DNA of 34,272 nt, taken from assembly GCA_944391325.1 (NCBI GenBank), contig CALXTC010000012.1, positions 1 to 34,272 of the forward strand. The letters run 5' to 3'. This DNA comes from an uncultured Candidatus Saccharibacteria bacterium. GTDB lineage: Bacteria; Patescibacteriota; Saccharimonadia; Saccharimonadales; Saccharimonadaceae. Positions 11,497 through 19,323 of this stretch are shown in pieces. How positions within the stretch are numbered: the first letter of the stretch is position 1; every line of letters begins with the position of its first letter. The notes under the pieces were generated by a model. It was not told the origin of the DNA, searched no databases, and saw only the letters and a program-made list of their open reading frames with translations. The translations under genes were made by a program, and so were the position numbers.

Positions 11497-12885
11497 CTAG
11501 TTGCGATAATACCTAAACTTAGCAGCTGGATTGCCAGAATCATCCAGCCCAACCAGGTTTCCACTACTCGTTTGACCCAGTATCGCATACTCGGCGGAAC
11601 CGCCAGCCGATATATTATTTAGCGTAGTATTACTAGCAGCCGTTGGTATTGCGCAATAGATACGAGTAGATGTCCGACGCGATTCACTATCGGCACTGAC
11701 GACACACATCTCATCGCTGTCGGGCTGTTTATCCCCGTCAATATCTATAAATACGCTCATATCCAGTGGCATATTAGCACCCATAATTGTCGCCTGCTGG
11801 TAATTGATATCGCCAGTTATATTATTGCCATCAGCATCTGGCGTACCGCCATTACCCCACGAATACACCGACCCATCTGTACCAATGGCAAACAAGGCCT
11901 CGCCAGAGGCAAAGACAGATTCAAATTTATTGTCGTAATTGCTACCTAGGTGGACTGGACCACGCTTAGCATAATAAGTAATATCGCTGCAGTTTGTCGC
12001 ATCTTGAATAGCATACCTATACCTATCACAGATATTATACTCATCGCCAGTGTCGCCAGCTATACCCAATACTCCGTTCTGATTATCACCCCAAGTAAAC
12101 ACCCGACCATCATTCGCAATCGCAACAACCTTATGAAAACCAACAGCAAGATCCTTGATGCCCTGCCCAATTATCTCATTCGCTTTGGACGGGCGTGGTG
12201 TTTCGATCTGCTCAGCAGTATCATAGTCGTCACGATAAACGGCATTCACAGGTTGAGGGTTCCAAACAATCACTGTCGTGCTCTGGTCTGGAATAATCTC
12301 CTCACCAAAGCCTAGGTTGCCATAATCATTCTGACCCCAGGCATACAGTTGACCATCATTCGTTCTGGCAAACGAGCCATTACTACTAGTTTCCACCTGA
12401 ACAACACCCTGTCCACGCAAAGATGTAATCTCGACTGGTGTATTAGAATCGTCAGTACCACCAACGCCTAACTGGCCATTCGAATTAAGACCCCAGCTAT
12501 ACACATAGCCCCGATCCGTCAGCACTAGCACGTGTGAATCAGTCGCTAAGTCGACAATATTGCCATTAAACGCAAAATTAACCACTTCCGGCAAGGTGTG
12601 TTGTCCGCCGGTCACGCCCAACCCCAATTGGCCGTGATGATTAAGACCCCAAGCATATAAGGTGCCGTCATTGGCTATGGCAAAGGCCTGTCGCCAGCCA
12701 GCATAGATTTTTATTATCTTGCGCCCAGCTGGCAGATTAAAATTATCTGTAATATCCGTTGGAATACTCACAGCCACCGACGTATCCTTGTCTTCGGTGC
12801 TAGCATCAGGGTTACTACATTCACCTTGGTTGCCATTGCCAAGTTGAGCGCAGTTATTAGCCCCCCCAACTGTAGACTCTACCAC
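11497..12885 (-). CDS. C-terminal part of secreted RCC1-repeat protein (frameshifted)
   Basis: This frame carries most of an RCC1-type beta-propeller: blades with YAWG..HHGQLGLG, YSWG..SNGQLGVG, YAWG..DYGNLGFG, FTWG..QNGVLGIAG and YSWG, then a tail ending LVGLDDSGNPAAKFRYYRN. It opens at about 12885 without a Shine-Dalgarno and its first real homology is ANNCAQLGNG, which continues the blade that stops abruptly in the upstream frame (VYSWGG, stop at 12857). It is therefore not an independent gene but the second half of the gene at 12857-14131, separated by one extra G in a G7 run (12861-12867). Correcting one base gives a single 877-residue protein with seven blades. RCC1 propellers bind proteins or DNA; here the protein is exported, so an adhesive role on the cell surface is inferred. 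Confidence 0.75.
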   Translation of the reverse strand: MVESTVGGANNCAQLGNGNQGECSNPDASTEDKDTSVAVSIPTDITDNFNLPAGRKIIKIYAGWRQAFAIANDGTLYAWGLNHHGQLGLGVTGGQHTLPEVVNFAFNGNIVDLATDSHVLVLTDRGYVYSWGLNSNGQLGVGGTDDSNTPVEITSLRGQGVVQVETSSNGSFARTNDGQLYAWGQNDYGNLGFGEEIIPDQSTTVIVWNPQPVNAVYRDDYDTAEQIETPRPSKANEIIGQGIKDLAVGFHKVVAIANDGRVFTWGDNQNGVLGIAGDTGDEYNICDRYRYAIQDATNCSDITYYAKRGPVHLGSNYDNKFESVFASGEALFAIGTDGSVYSWGNGGTPDADGNNITGDINYQQATIMGANMPLDMSVFIDIDGDKQPDSDEMCVVSADSESRRTSTRIYCAIPTAASNTTLNNISAGGSAEYAILGQTSSGNLVGLDDSGNPAAKFRYYRN

Positions 12886-14131
12886 TATCCGTCAGTGCTA
12901 AACTATAATTTCCACCAGCCGACACACTAACCACCTTGCCGTCAAAGCGTGATGTGATGTTGTATATTCCACCATCATTGCTAGTGTCCCCAATTCCTAA
13001 CTGTCCATGATCATTATTGGTTGTAGTGGTGAAAACCTGTCCCGATTGCGTCAAAATAATCCGATGCGAGCTACCGCCAGCCATCTCAATTGGGCGATCA
13101 TCATCATCCAGATTAAAGGTACTTGGCGACACACCAGCTATGGCCATCTGGCGAGTATAGGTGAATGCTCCTCTTAATTGCGCATACTGGTGTTCGCCTA
13201 CGCCATTGTTGTTATCCACCCAAACATCGAACTTAATCTCCTGATCAGCCGCCACAATTGACTCATCTAAATTATTCGGAAAGTCCACTACCAATTGGCC
13301 GTATTCCTGGCTGATTATCTCGCCAATTATGGCGTCAGGCGCCTCGCAGCCTGTCGACGAGCTATCAGTAGGCGTCAAGCAGACTTGGCTGGCTGTAATC
13401 AAGTTAGAACCGGCAATGACAACCTCGGCAGGCACTGTCTCATCGCCAAGATTATAGGCGTTTGGCGTGATGCCGTCTAGCCTAGCCGGTTCAATTGGGT
13501 TAGCCGTCGCCGTGTATACTATTTCCGCCACATAATCACCAGCCAGCATCATTGTTTCAGCACCACGCACCCCAAACCACACCTCGTAATTATTGTTACC
13601 TGGCGCAGAGGTCGCCCCAATAATATCTGTCGTTTTATCCAACGGCAAGCCAGCCCATAGCGAACTTGTAGCTGGATTTGCCTCATATGCCTGATCAAAG
13701 CCACCCAGCCCAGGTACAGCATAACCCCATGTCCCTGAGATTAATGCCAACGGCGACTGTTGCGTAGCCCCAAGCAGTGGTGCTATCGATGCACCACGGT
13801 CATTAACCAAACTGCCAGCCGTATATGGCGATTCACCAGATCGATCAACCACCGAAATAGTCACGTTATATCCATACGGTGCCTCGTCTTGGCCAAAATT
13901 GACGCCAACCGTCTGCTGACCAGCCACCAGCTTGTTTGAATCAAAGGTTAATTGCAGATTAGTTGGAGAAACGGTGATCGAGGCCGCTTCGACTGGTCTA
14001 GGCGAAACAAAAGTTAACAAAGCAGGCACCATCACAAATGTTGCCCATAAAACTCTTTCAACAGCCTTTATCGCCCTCACCGTTATGCAGGTTGAGACAC
14101 AGTATCCCCTACCCCAGAATCCTTTCTGCAC
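12857..14131 (-). CDS. N-terminal part of secreted RCC1-repeat protein (frameshifted)
   Basis: N-terminal half of the split beta-propeller gene. The first 50 residues form a signal peptide (basic RAIKAVERV, hydrophobic LWATFVMVPALLTFV, then PRPVEAASI, a likely signal peptidase I site after VEA). Residues about 55-230 are a Thr/Val-rich beta-sandwich-like region, and about 235-345 resemble an IPT/TIG-like fold (GITPNAYNLG...VVIAGSNLITAS). Two RCC1 blades follow, up to SGRVYSWGG, before a stop created by the G7 run. A GTG at 14131 lies 9 bases after TATAAC, matching the leaderless style here; the GTG at 14081 (VRAIKAV) is the alternative start. The pattern of signal peptide, adhesin-like domains and propeller suggests a cell-surface protein, possibly for host contact in an episymbiont (inference). 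Confidence 0.75.
   Translation of the reverse strand: MQKGFWGRGYCVSTCITVRAIKAVERVLWATFVMVPALLTFVSPRPVEAASITVSPTNLQLTFDSNKLVAGQQTVGVNFGQDEAPYGYNVTISVVDRSGESPYTAGSLVNDRGASIAPLLGATQQSPLALISGTWGYAVPGLGGFDQAYEANPATSSLWAGLPLDKTTDIIGATSAPGNNNYEVWFGVRGAETMMLAGDYVAEIVYTATANPIEPARLDGITPNAYNLGDETVPAEVVIAGSNLITASQVCLTPTDSSSTGCEAPDAIIGEIISQEYGQLVVDFPNNLDESIVAADQEIKFDVWVDNNNGVGEHQYAQLRGAFTYTRQMAIAGVSPSTFNLDDDDRPIEMAGGSSHRIILTQSGQVFTTTTNNDHGQLGIGDTSNDGGIYNITSRFDGKVVSVSAGGNYSLALTDSGRVYSWGG
12861..12867 (-). repeat. G7 homopolymer that splits the RCC1 gene
   Basis: Seven Gs on the coding strand lie exactly at the frame break; six would restore a continuous 878-codon frame. This may be a contingency (phase-variation) tract or a homopolymer sequencing error. 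Confidence 0.8.
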
Positions 14132-17156: not shown

Positions 17157-17289
17157 ATAGGTTCGCCTGCTGTATTAGAATCCCCTGCCATTGACAAGGT
17201 GGGTGTTCGCAATGTCGAACCACGGTTCGACACCATATAGAACTCCCGTTCTGATACGTGTTAGGAAATTAAACTGCTGGCGAACCTAT
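17157..17289 (-). ncRNA. Candidate structured leader or small RNA
   Basis: A 133-base element closed by a perfect 11-bp stem, ATAGGTTCGCC (17157-17167)/GGCGAACCTAT (17279-17289). Inside are TGTCGAAC/GTTCGACA (17213-17220/17225-17232), AGAAC/GTTCT (17239-17243/17248-17252) and, next to an asymmetric bubble, a seven-pair stem containing G-U pairs on the minus strand. A promoter (17294-17323) places the transcription start almost exactly at the base of the closing stem. It could be a free small RNA or the 5' leader of the Nudix/RNase H gene, which starts 45 bases downstream. It resembles no riboswitch that I recognise. Confidence 0.5.
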
Positions 17290-17293
17290 CTAT

Positions 17294-17323
17294 AGTATAT
17301 CATTAAACCTGTCATCATGACAA
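17294..17323 (-). promoter_or_regulatory. Promoter of the 17157-17289 element
   Basis: Minus-strand TTGTCA, 18-base spacer, TATACT, ending about 5 bases before the closing stem of the structured element. Confidence 0.65.
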
Positions 17324-17393
17324 AAATTTTATTAAACACCATTTAAAAAGTATCGACAACAAAGTTGCAGCTAAGCCAAAAGCACTACCATGG

Positions 17394-17399
17394 TATACT
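17394..17399 (+). promoter_or_regulatory. -10 box of the DarT/NADAR unit
   Basis: TATACT preceded by TGG (extended -10), 8 bases before ATG 17408; no clear -35. Predicts a leaderless mRNA. Confidence 0.55.
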
Positions 17400-17407
17400 A
17401 GAGACAT

Positions 17408-17995
17408 ATGAACGGCATGGATGAGTACTCCAAAGATATTGTCTTCGGAATATTGGCCACAATCATAGGGATTATTTGCGTAATAGCTCTGCTAAATGCA
17501 CATTCATTTGGCCCCCTTTTAGCCATAGCAGTACTTATATTTACACCGTTGTTCTCTCTTTATGTAATAATAGGGCCAATAGAGACAATCGTAGCAATAT
17601 ATCGAAAAATAATGCACAGCAGAAAACAGACAAACAAATCCCCATGGAGTGCCCATGAGGCAGATATCGATAACGATATGTCAACCAACAAGCCTAACTC
17701 TTTAGCTTTTTCCTCAAATCGCTCATCAGCTTCTAACACTATTAAGGACAAAACCGCCAGAAACCATACAGATAATTTATCGTACAGCAACAAAATAAAT
17801 TCAAAAACCAATTTAACTCCACCAAGCCCATTTCAAAAAGCCATGGATGATACACAAACAATAGCTATCAATCAACTCGCCACAAAAAGACCATCCAACG
17901 GGCACAAAACGTATTCCGCTCAGACGCATCAGCATCATCAAATCACACCCCCCCCATTCCTCAGACGTCCAGTTTTTGCAGAGGCGAGGCGTTAA
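17408..17995 (+). CDS. Membrane protein overlapping the DarT gene
   Basis: I do not recognise a family. The 195-aa product begins with two hydrophobic helices (about residues 12-31, IVFGILATIIGIICVIALL, and 36-60, LLAIAVLIFTPLFSLYVIIG). A basic segment (YRKIMHSRKQ) and about 125 polar residues rich in Ser, Asn, Thr, Lys and His follow, probably a cytoplasmic disordered tail. It is the first gene of the toxin-antitoxin unit. Its last 20 bases overlap the darT-like gene in another frame, and an eight-C run (17948-17955) lies near its end. Loss of one C would join it in frame to the toxin as a 374-residue membrane-anchored protein. Whether it anchors the toxin, is the N-terminal part of it or is an unrelated neighbour cannot be decided here. 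Confidence 0.65.
   Translation: MNGMDEYSKDIVFGILATIIGIICVIALLNAHSFGPLLAIAVLIFTPLFSLYVIIGPIETIVAIYRKIMHSRKQTNKSPWSAHEADIDNDMSTNKPNSLAFSSNRSSASNTIKDKTARNHTDNLSYSNKINSKTNLTPPSPFQKAMDDTQTIAINQLATKRPSNGHKTYSAQTHQHHQITPPPFLRRPVFAEARR
17948..17955 (+). repeat. C8 homopolymer at the membrane-protein/toxin junction
   Basis: Eight Cs within the last codons of the membrane-protein gene. Removing one C shifts translation into the toxin frame, which is open here without a start codon back to about 17865. The bridging residues would be HSSDVQFLQRRGVKYLYHF. Confidence 0.8.
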
Positions 17996-18533
17996 ATATC
18001 TATATCATTTCACATGCGTTGGAAACCTGTCGTCAATTCTAAGAAATGGCATCTTATCCGTTAATCAACTAAAGACTAAGGGGATTAGGTACTATTACAA
18101 TGACCCAGAAAGGTATGATGGCAATCTCAACGCCATTAGCGTATCAGTTAGTTTTCCAAACAATAAATTATTTTGCAAGTTTCGTGAGGTAGATTGGCGA
18201 AGCAACCATAGATGGGCAGTCTTAGAAATGCCAGTGACCATTCTAGATAGATTACAGTATAAGTGTTACGCACACAATGCAGCACGTTATGATACGCCGA
18301 GCTGCAGCATAGAAGACATGTTTGGCGCTAGTAACGATGAATATCCAGAGGATGTACAAGCCGAGATAATGATAGAGAGTGCAATCCCTGTCTCTGCCAT
18401 AGAGTGTATATATGTAGACTATCCATACGGCCCAAGCGCAGATGTTCGCAACATCGTCGACGACTCTGGGTTAAATATCCCCGTAGTTAAATCACACAAG
18501 TTTTTCACAGTAAGAAGAGATAAGGATAAATAA
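17976..18533 (+). CDS. DarT-family (DarT1-like) DNA ADP-ribosyltransferase toxin
   Basis: DarT toxins use NAD+ to attach ADP-ribose to bases in single-stranded DNA and so block replication; DarT1 members modify guanine. The 185-aa product has the family features: RGVKYLYHFTCVGNLSSIL with the NAD-binding His (H11), a DPERYDGNLNAISVSVSFPN block with Arg (R46), which corresponds to the conserved ADP-ribosylation loop region, and VQAEIMIESAIP with the catalytic Glu (E130). The only start in frame is TTG 17976, without a Shine-Dalgarno, inside the end of the upstream gene. Family members usually have several residues before RG.KYL, and the frame codes such residues (SDVQFLQ) upstream of the TTG, so translation may instead enter by coupling or slippage at the C8 run. 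The antitoxin gene begins one base after its stop. Confidence 0.85.
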   Translation: MQRRGVKYLYHFTCVGNLSSILRNGILSVNQLKTKGIRYYYNDPERYDGNLNAISVSVSFPNNKLFCKFREVDWRSNHRWAVLEMPVTILDRLQYKCYAHNAARYDTPSCSIEDMFGASNDEYPEDVQAEIMIESAIPVSAIECIYVDYPYGPSADVRNIVDDSGLNIPVVKSHKFFTVRRDKDK

Positions 18534-18534
18534 C

Positions 18535-19260
18535 ATGTCATCAAGCACAACAATCATTACTCAGCGTTTGGCTTTTATGACTAATGATAGCGCCTATTAC
18601 ATTGAAGAGCCCATCGCATTCACATGGCACATGGGCATGTCGTGGCAAGTCAGACAGCGTTCGTCACAATCTCTTAGAGAAGAGATATTAAATAAATACC
18701 CTAGCCGTAAAGCAATCGAAATATCGACAGCCTCAGATAATTATGAATTGGGCAAACAGCTTAGCGCATTAAACTTAACATTTGACGGCATCCCCGTAGA
18801 AAACATTTTTCAAGGCTCCAAAATTTACAGTGGCGAAAACGAGCCACACGTGGAGCTATTCAGCCAAAGTGCCAAAGACGCTAAACGATTCTCTAAAGAA
18901 ATGCAAGCTCTAAAGCACACTGTCACTGGATTTAAATACAATGGCAAAACTTTTGACACATTTCCCTATTCTTCTTTTTACGATTGGATATACATCAATG
19001 CTCTACATCAACACCCTGAGCTAGCACGTAATATCTTAGACTATGATACTTTTACAGATATTCATTTTAATCAGAAGGTTGCCTATAGTAATAAAGGGCC
19101 CTTCAATTGCCAAGCTCGCGCGCTAGCCATTTATGTTAGCCTAGTCAAGCGAAAGACGCTAGAAGAATATTTGCAAGATCCAGAGCGGCTTAGGCATGCT
19201 ATTTACAAAGAACTGTACAAGACCCACGAGCCTGAACACACGCAGCTCTCTTTAATGTAA
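18535..19260 (+). CDS. NADAR-type antitoxin paired with DarT
   Basis: A 241-aa protein that I match from memory to the DarT1-associated NADAR antitoxin family: FTWHMGMSWQVRQRSSQSLR, then KAIEISTASDNYELGKQLSAL, the NADAR block VENIFQGSKIYSG, and the C-terminal FYDWIYINALHQHPELA with FNCQARALAIYVSLVKR. NADAR proteins hydrolyse ADP-ribose from guanine bases, reversing DarT1. The ATG is one base after the toxin stop, preceded by AAGGAT, so the two are co-translated; this is the order expected of a toxin-antitoxin pair. Base composition (AT-richer, more Lys and Asn) differs somewhat from neighbouring housekeeping genes, in keeping with acquisition by transfer (inference). Confidence 0.8.
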   Translation: MSSSTTIITQRLAFMTNDSAYYIEEPIAFTWHMGMSWQVRQRSSQSLREEILNKYPSRKAIEISTASDNYELGKQLSALNLTFDGIPVENIFQGSKIYSGENEPHVELFSQSAKDAKRFSKEMQALKHTVTGFKYNGKTFDTFPYSSFYDWIYINALHQHPELARNILDYDTFTDIHFNQKVAYSNKGPFNCQARALAIYVSLVKRKTLEEYLQDPERLRHAIYKELYKTHEPEHTQLSLM

Positions 19261-19323
19261 GGCATTCAGGTACATACACTGGCAAAGCAGACAGGTGACG
19301 TCATGACGTTTTTGGGTGGTTAA

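What the first reader, a model, noticed from the sequence alone, without database searches (positions are those of the whole stretch)
17408..19260. DarT/NADAR toxin-antitoxin unit with an overlapping membrane-protein gene and a C8 switch
The toxin frame has no ATG/GTG start; the only candidate is TTG 17976, lacking a ribosome site, and conserved N-terminal residues continue upstream of it into the frame. A C8 run in the preceding gene lies exactly where one lost C (or +1 slippage) would fuse a two-helix membrane domain and long polar tail to the toxin (374 aa). This suggests either a membrane-anchored DarT or a phase-variable on/off toxin. DarT and NADAR identification rests on family motifs.
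Basis: partly seen in the sequence, partly recalled or inferred. Interest (0 to 1): 0.85.

Follow-up and report, generated by a model that had tools for sequence, protein, structure and literature searches.

The report
Membrane-tethered DNA-modifying toxin with C-tract switch
A tiny bacterium carries a toxin-antitoxin pair whose DNA-modifying toxin appears to be tied to the cell membrane and put out of frame by a run of eight Cs, which may act as a reversible on/off switch but could also be a dead gene or a sequencing slip.

Summary
17976-18533 encodes a DarT1 ADP-ribosyltransferase domain and 18535-19260 its NADAR antitoxin. The only ATG/GTG/TTG in the toxin frame before the catalytic core is TTG 17976. 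A start there would remove six of the nine residues of the predicted first helix, which begins just after the C8 run, and leave 11 residues to the HFT motif; 64 relatives counted allow 14 or more (one left-out partial frame allows 5). Relatives elsewhere are often single genes of this plan: 34 of 70 DarT frames have long N-terminal extensions, 13 with an N-terminal membrane helix. The unit is a ~2 kb insertion absent from the one congener held; the antitoxin family was found in 1 of 379 phylum genomes. C/G runs of 8 or more number nine in the genome. A G7 also splits an RCC1-repeat protein in this window, and six G tracts lie at the start of a paralogous family, three in frame. So: one membrane-tethered DarT1 gene, out of frame at C8 in this assembly, probably phase-variable. 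Reversibility is not shown; pseudogene or sequencing error remain possible.

The parts
17304..19323 (.). inserted unit (promoter region, tethered darT1, nadar) absent from the same-genus genome G052
   Evidence: In G052 the same two neighbours (NUDIX/RNase H-like and M50 peptidase) are 159 bp apart against 2205 bp here; conserved intergenic sequence ends at 17303; GC 0.39-0.41 against 0.45-0.48 in the flanking genes
17391..17399 (+). extended -10-like TGGTATACT, 9 nt before ATG 17408
   Evidence: Seen by eye; the promoter scan lists no + strand site, so weak
17408..17995 (+). N-terminal frame: two membrane helices (17438-17494, 17516-17572) and a polar linker, ending out of frame after the C8
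   Evidence: no credible Pfam family, best E=0.32; best of three frames by codon score, though its own score is near zero
17865..17995 (+). zone where both frames are open
17948..17955 (+). C8 tract at which the two frames meet
17958..17984 (+). predicted helix 1 of the toxin domain (SSDVQFLQR), lying upstream of and across TTG 17976
   Evidence: AlphaFold2 model residues 16-24; mean pLDDT 74 for residues 11-20, 97 for 21-30
17976..17978 (+). TTG, the only ATG/GTG/TTG in the toxin frame before the core; unlikely true start
17976..18533 (+). DarT1 ssDNA ADP-ribosyltransferase domain
   Evidence: PF14487 E=1.7e-11; E. coli C7 DarT1 8baq E=1e-18 by sequence, TM-score 0.76; R, D, N and E active-site residues invariant
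18522..18526 (+). Shine-Dalgarno-like AAGGA, 8 nt before nadar
   Evidence: Sequence
18535..19260 (+). NADAR antitoxin (guanine-ADP-ribose hydrolase by family)
   Evidence: PF22397 E=4.4e-57; G. lovleyi NADAR 8bat E=4e-24

Best explanation
The unit is a horizontally acquired DarTG1 toxin-antitoxin system whose toxin gene is one frame: a two-helix membrane hairpin, a polar cytoplasmic linker of about 125 residues, and a DarT1 domain. Switched ON, DarT1 is held at the inner face of the membrane and ADP-ribosylates guanines in single-stranded DNA; NADAR, with its own start and ribosome site, removes the mark. In the sequenced copy the C8 run puts the linker and toxin out of register, so only a 195-residue membrane peptide and NADAR are made: OFF. 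Slipped-strand mispairing at the C run would switch cells between a protected but risk-bearing ON state and a safe OFF state, as in other phase-variable defence genes (recalled). Shown by computation: domains, active-site residues, recurring tether, position of the C8, truncation of predicted helix 1 by a TTG start. Inferred: membrane insertion, activity, reversibility, defence role.
For: Profiles, solved relatives and fold. Active-site R, D, N, E all present (roles from passages of PMC11543638), so the domain does not look decayed. Of 70 near-full DarT frames (the window's own among them) 34 carry >45 residues before the core, 13 with an N-terminal membrane segment, 6 of these with two or more segments, in alphaproteobacteria. 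Helix 1 starts right after the C8; TTG 17976 removes six of its nine residues. Of 66 relatives' frames counted, 64 have a start and the furthest-upstream one leaves 14 or more residues to the HFT motif; TTG leaves 11. A/T runs of 8 or more are depleted (4 against 34 expected), while the C/G run histogram does not keep falling (6:14, 7:3, 8:5, 9:3, 10:1). With the screen's settings only two runs of 7 or more in 621,344 bases lie where two long frames overlap, both C/G: this C8 and the G7 inside an RCC1-repeat protein. Six polyG tracts of 7-10 sit near the start of a paralogous family, 3 of 6 in frame with a similar upstream ATG.
Against: No reads, strains or second assembly show two tract lengths. 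The number of C/G runs of 8 or more (9) is close to a first-order chance expectation (7.5), so only their place and the shape of the histogram are unusual. In the congener only 2 of 18 C/G runs of 7 or more lie inside a frame of 300 aa or more, so coding tracts are not a fixed genus habit. The 13 tethered DarT1 genes have no C/G run over 6; three have A/T runs of 8. The paralog family has an SD-like GGAGGTGAC before a TTG downstream of the tract, so its tracts may not switch it, and a seventh member (contig C1) has no tract. In two near-identical A. soli plasmids the only differences across the tethered darT1 are T-run lengths, a pattern as typical of base-calling error as of switching. The helix-1 start has only moderate model confidence. 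One partial DarT frame (L080), left out of the 66 by a profile-coverage filter, would leave only 5 residues before HFT, and some relatives (L086, L093) have a second, closer ATG.
Confidence: 0.48

Rival explanations
1. Pseudogene: the tethered darT1 was broken once at the C run and is drifting, while NADAR is kept or lingers.
For: DarT1 genes are found broken elsewhere: an IS3 lies inside one Deinococcus copy, a Novosphingobium copy is split inside its HFT motif, a Lachnospiraceae copy has an in-frame stop before the core, Acinetobacter copies are out of frame. None of 197 other family genomes searched gave a match to the toxin, so the unit is not conserved.
Against: The toxin domain keeps every residue invariant among 40 rows and its frame has no stop up to the NADAR gene; the break sits at a run of a kind that is rare in the genome.
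Confidence: 0.2
2. Sequencing or assembly error in the C run: the real gene is an intact tethered DarT1.
For: The assembly is in 27 contigs, 78% complete. The same contig also has the RCC1 gene broken at a G run. Homopolymer errors may well explain differences between public Acinetobacter copies.
Against: None of the 34 A/T runs of 7 or more lies in a two-frame overlap under the same screen, so the assembly lacks the usual signature of indel-prone reads. Tract lengths of 7-10 in paralogs are not single-base slips from one length.
Confidence: 0.15
3. Two ordinary overlapping genes: a small membrane protein and a soluble DarT1 starting at TTG 17976 by translational coupling.
For: 119 same-strand pairs in this genome have overlapping open frames and 56 of these lack an SD-like motif; a few overlap by about 20 nt with TTG or GTG as first start. 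Many relatives are stand-alone DarT1s, and one partial frame (L080) starts closer to HFT than TTG 17976 does.
Against: Helix 1 would be mostly lost; the 64 relatives counted all allow a longer N-terminus; fused membrane-linker-DarT1 genes recur.
Confidence: 0.1
4. Constant low-level frameshifting (ribosomal or transcriptional slippage on C8) keeps the toxin scarce without any change in DNA.
For: A C run read CCC-CCC-CC before the break is a slippery context (sequence; general knowledge, recalled).
Against: No stimulatory element was looked for; variable tract lengths in a paralog family of the same genome point to DNA-level change.
Confidence: 0.07

Closest known systems
DarTG1 (E. coli C7 DarT1, PDB 8baq; Geobacter lovleyi NADAR, PDB 8bat; PMC11543638)
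   Same: Toxin fold and active-site R, D, N, E; adjacent NADAR of the DarT1-associated family
   Different: E. coli C7 DarT1 is given as residues 1-207 in full and so has no long extension; here an anchor and long linker precede the domain, M71 is leucine (as in some relatives), and the frame is broken at C8
Fused DarT1 genes with an N-terminal membrane segment found here (L005, L006, L018, L021, L025, L027, L031, L033, L058, L073, L081, L090, L094)
   Same: N-terminal membrane helix or hairpin, long extension, DarT1, then NADAR
   Different: The alphaproteobacterial hairpin is not detectably related to this one; these 13 are in frame; no C/G run longer than 6 in the extension
Phase-variable defence genes with homopolymer tracts (restriction-modification, PglX; recalled, not tested here)
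   Same: On/off frame switching at a homopolymer in the coding region
   Different: There switching is demonstrated; here only one tract length is seen and the gene is a toxin

Membership tests
DarT / DarT1 (PF14487) | profile match above the curated cut-off | tested here: met
   44.7 bits against 22.5
DarT / DarT1 (PF14487) | fold of a solved DarT1 | tested here: met
   8baq first, E=1e-14, TM 0.76; the other DarT structures listed 0.53-0.63
DarT / DarT1 (PF14487) | active-site R52, D54, N104, E152 (E. coli C7 numbering) | tested here: met
   R67, D69, N122, E151 of the aligned row, invariant in 40 of 40 rows, matched to the C7 sequence; roles from PMC11543638 passages
DarT / DarT1 (PF14487) | M71 | tested here: not met
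   Leucine here; also leucine in L004, L016, L022 and L086, so not a strict family feature
DarTG1 system | adjacent DarT1-associated NADAR antitoxin | tested here: met
   PF22397, 193 bits against 27, one base after the toxin stop
DarTG1 system | toxicity neutralised by NADAR; guanine ADP-ribosylation | not testable with these tools
   Needs expression
Phase-variable contingency locus | long homopolymer in a coding region at a frame break | tested here: met
   C8 at 17948-17955 in the two-frame zone
Phase-variable contingency locus | variable tract length within a population | not testable with these tools
   No reads, and no second copy of the locus found
Membrane-anchored protein | hydrophobic helices followed by positive residues | tested here: met
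   Kyte-Doolittle 3.1 and 2.6 over 19 residues, then YRKIMHSRK; insertion itself not tested

The most novel reading that the evidence does not exclude
A phase-variable, membrane-tethered DarT1: an ultra-small bacterium flips by tract slippage a single-strand-DNA guanine ADP-ribosyltransferase that is held at the membrane, where phage or taken-up DNA enters, so that only part of the population carries the guard at any time. Tethering of DarT1 would be a convergent solution, since sequence-unrelated membrane segments are fused to DarT1 in different bacteria.
Probability: 0.33. Interest if true: 0.8.

Novelty: new variant of a known kind. Interest (0 to 1): 0.58.

Why it matters
DarTG systems are anti-phage toxin-antitoxin systems; the words 'transmembrane' and 'anchor' do not occur in the two DarT1-NADAR papers searched. 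Recurring membrane tethers on DarT1 suggest that it may act where DNA enters, which can be tested. A homopolymer switch on the toxin alone, with the antitoxin left on, would be a clean way to hedge the cost of a toxic defence. The listings I saw showed no report of phase variation of DarT or of homopolymer phase variation in this bacterial group (open-licence papers only, and four of the five listings were cut).

Tried and rejected
Close relatives of the toxin: none in 198 family genomes but its own, none in viral contigs or phages. Plasmids gave 22 DarT and 28 NADAR records. So no orthologous locus with another tract length was found; the one genome-contig scan kept the best 80 of 496 confirmed loci, best NADAR identity 49%.

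Homology of the membrane hairpin with the alphaproteobacterial hairpins: none detected. Relatives of the whole N-terminal frame: 3 other genomes of 198, E 0.002 to 0.008, not credible.

Codon-score test of where the frame switches: inconclusive. Between 17948 and 17995 the frames score from -2.1 to -0.6, and the upstream frame as a whole scores only -1.3.

A C/G tract as a family feature: rejected. Acinetobacter copies with different run lengths were considered as independent switching, but are equally explained by sequencing error.

PolyG habit in the genus: 2 of 18 runs of 7 or more in G052 lie inside frames of 300 aa or more. Promoter-type tracts: 0 of 12 in G000, 1 of 18 in G052.

Rows left out: the structure alignment used 39 of the 49 relatives prepared; the start-distance count used 66 of 69 relatives' frames, L010 and L080 among those dropped by the profile-start filter.

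Full report
What is there. The window holds, in order on the + strand, a 195-codon frame with two strongly hydrophobic stretches (17408-17995), a frame open from 17865 to 18533 that encodes a DarT domain, and a NADAR gene at 18535-19260. The toxin domain matches Pfam DarT at 44.7 bits (cut-off 22.5) and the antitoxin matches NADAR-DarT1 at 193 bits (cut-off 27). The solved structures found by sequence are E. coli C7 DarT1 and Geobacter lovleyi NADAR. A model built with 39 relatives (mean pLDDT 87.8) has E. coli C7 DarT1 as its best match in the PDB, TM-score 0.76, ahead of the other DarT structures. The residues that PMC11543638 reports as essential (R52, D54, N104, E152; passages seen) are all present and invariant in the 40-row alignment; M71, also reported there, is leucine, as in some relatives. 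The toxin domain therefore looks intact and DarT1-like.

Is it one gene or two? The toxin frame has no ATG or GTG before its core; the one TTG lies at 17976. Three results argue that this is not the start. First, in the model the first helix is residues 16-24, encoded by 17958-17984, so a TTG start would remove six of its nine residues; the helix begins just after the C8 (mean pLDDT 74 for residues 11-20, 97 for 21-30). Second, of 66 DarT frames counted in other loci, 64 have a start codon, and measured from the furthest-upstream one all allow at least 14 residues up to the HFT motif, whereas TTG 17976 gives 11; two have no ATG/GTG/TTG there, of which L045 has an in-frame stop before the core. 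The count is generous, since some true starts may lie closer, and a partial frame left out by the filter, L080, allows only 5. Third, among 70 near-full DarT frames (stop to stop, the window's included) 34 have more than 45 residues before the core; 14 of these pass a hydrophobicity threshold, of which one (L008) is internal and marginal, leaving 13 with an N-terminal membrane segment. In several alphaproteobacteria this is a hairpin followed by a long extension, the same plan as here though without detectable sequence relation. The missing ribosome site is weak evidence: 56 of 119 same-strand pairs with overlapping open frames in this genome have none by a loose motif.

Where it came from. 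In G052, the only other genome of the genus held, the two neighbours of the unit stand 159 bp apart with a conserved 6S-like RNA between them; here they are 2205 bp apart and the conserved sequence ends at 17303. The RNA, at 17157-17288 on the - strand, scores 32.3 bits against Rfam 6S, under the gathering score of 46.4, and the element is 78% identical between the two genomes over 133 columns. The unit has lower GC than its neighbours. DarT1-associated NADAR was found in 1 of 379 phylum genomes, the toxin in 1 of 198 family genomes. This fits an import of toxin, linker and antitoxin together. The nearest NADAR relatives found are in a Coriobacteriia and a Lactobacillaceae metagenome assembly, 49% and 48% identical.

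Is the C8 special? The genome has 12 C/G runs of 7 or more and 9 of 8 or more. By a first-order model 7.5 of the latter are expected, so their number is not in excess; but A/T runs of 8 or more are strongly depleted (4 seen, 34 expected), and the C/G histogram falls steeply to 7 and then does not (6:14, 7:3, 8:5, 9:3, 10:1). In a screen that asks for at least 60 codons on the upstream side and 50 beyond the overlap, only two runs of 7 or more of any base lie where two frames overlap: this C8 and a G7 at 12861-12867. The second splits a protein whose two halves both match RCC1 repeats and meet inside one repeat. Six further G tracts of 7-10 lie near the start of a family of paralogous proteins of about 1000 residues, too close to their start for that screen; counted from a similar upstream ATG, three of the six are in frame, and a seventh member has no tract. 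A caveat is that these paralogs also have an SD-like motif before a TTG after the tract. At the genome's rate 0.002 C/G runs of 8 or more would be expected in the 131-nt zone where both toxin frames are open. The C8 is thus very probably why the frame is broken; that alone does not tell reversible switching from a fixed break or a base-calling error.

Evidence that cuts the other way. Only 2 of the congener's 18 C/G runs of 7 or more lie inside frames of 300 aa or more. The 13 tethered DarT1 genes elsewhere have no C/G run over 6 in the extension, though three have A/T runs of 8. Two near-identical Acinetobacter soli plasmid copies of a tethered darT1 differ from each other only in T-run lengths and both are out of frame, while an A. 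junii contig carries an intact copy; sequencing error explains that as well as switching. DarT1 genes are also found broken in other ways: by an IS3 element, by a frame change inside the HFT motif in Novosphingobium, by a stop. So a pseudogene is a serious rival.

How it most likely works. Switched on, the product would be anchored by the hairpin with linker and DarT1 in the cytoplasm (positive residues after the second helix), acting on guanines in single-stranded DNA near the membrane, with NADAR reversing the mark on the cell's own DNA. The chemistry is taken from PMC11543638 and PMC11125620 (passages seen); the location and switch are inference. Switched off, NADAR stays on, so the switch is safe in both directions.

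What is known. In the two DarT1-NADAR papers the words 'transmembrane', 'anchor', 'phase variation', 'phase-variable' and 'homopolymer' do not occur. Listings of searches for DarT1 with NADAR, DarT with phase variation, toxin-antitoxin with phase-variable, and Saccharibacteria or Patescibacteria with phase variation showed no paper on this; all but the first two of these listings were cut, and only open-licence papers are held. One listed paper, PMC6851277 (passages seen), reports a hypervariable 9-base repeat gene in a Gracilibacterium, another candidate-phyla bacterium, and discusses slipped-strand mispairing; it has no homopolymer. [quoted passage not shown] this genome instead depletes long A/T runs. 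Verdict: a member of DarTG1 by every sequence feature tested but M71, in a membrane-tethered form that recurs but that I did not find described, with a plausible but unproven C-tract switch.

Noticed in passing
window 11497-14131 (-), G7 at 12861-12867: An RCC1-repeat protein is split into two frames (424 and 462 aa) at a G7 run; both halves match RCC1 and meet inside one repeat. Second C/G-tract frame break on the same contig.
   Followed up: partly
G000 contigs C3, C7, C8, C19, C22, C23 (L096, L097, L098, L102, L104, L105): A family of paralogous ~1000-aa proteins with one N-terminal membrane segment, no Pfam match for the two tested, has G tracts of 7-10 just after a similar ATG; 3 of 6 are in frame, a seventh member (C1) has no tract. 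Looks like a phase-variable surface family, but a TTG with an SD-like motif lies downstream.
   Followed up: partly
G040 loci L175, L179, L180, L187: In another genome of the family, G tracts of 8-10 fill the spacer between TTGACA-like and TATACT-like hexamers; 4 of 21 tracts fetched from G040 and G034 pass the pattern, against 1 of 18 in G052 and 0 of 12 in G000. Suggests switchable promoters.
   Followed up: partly
121 genomes of the family: Counts of the 8-mer GGGGGGGG range from 0 to 249 per genome (G073: 171 + 78); high in all three genomes of g21 and all four of g10 sampled, zero in 36 of 121. Base composition was not controlled.
   Followed up: no
window 17157-17288 (-): 6S RNA-like element, below Rfam's gathering score (32.3 of 46.4 bits, E=4e-5), conserved in G052 with a TATACT/TATAAT box upstream.
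   Followed up: partly
L004-L095: DarT1 carries many kinds of N-terminal extension: membrane segments, an extension with CxxC pairs and repeat-like stretches (L016), a very long repeat-rich one (L031), VEP repeats (L005).
   Followed up: partly
L030 3325-3981; L045 3235-3975: Two DarT1 frames have no ATG/GTG/TTG before the core; L045 has an in-frame TGA between a short CxxC-containing N-terminus and the toxin.
   Followed up: partly
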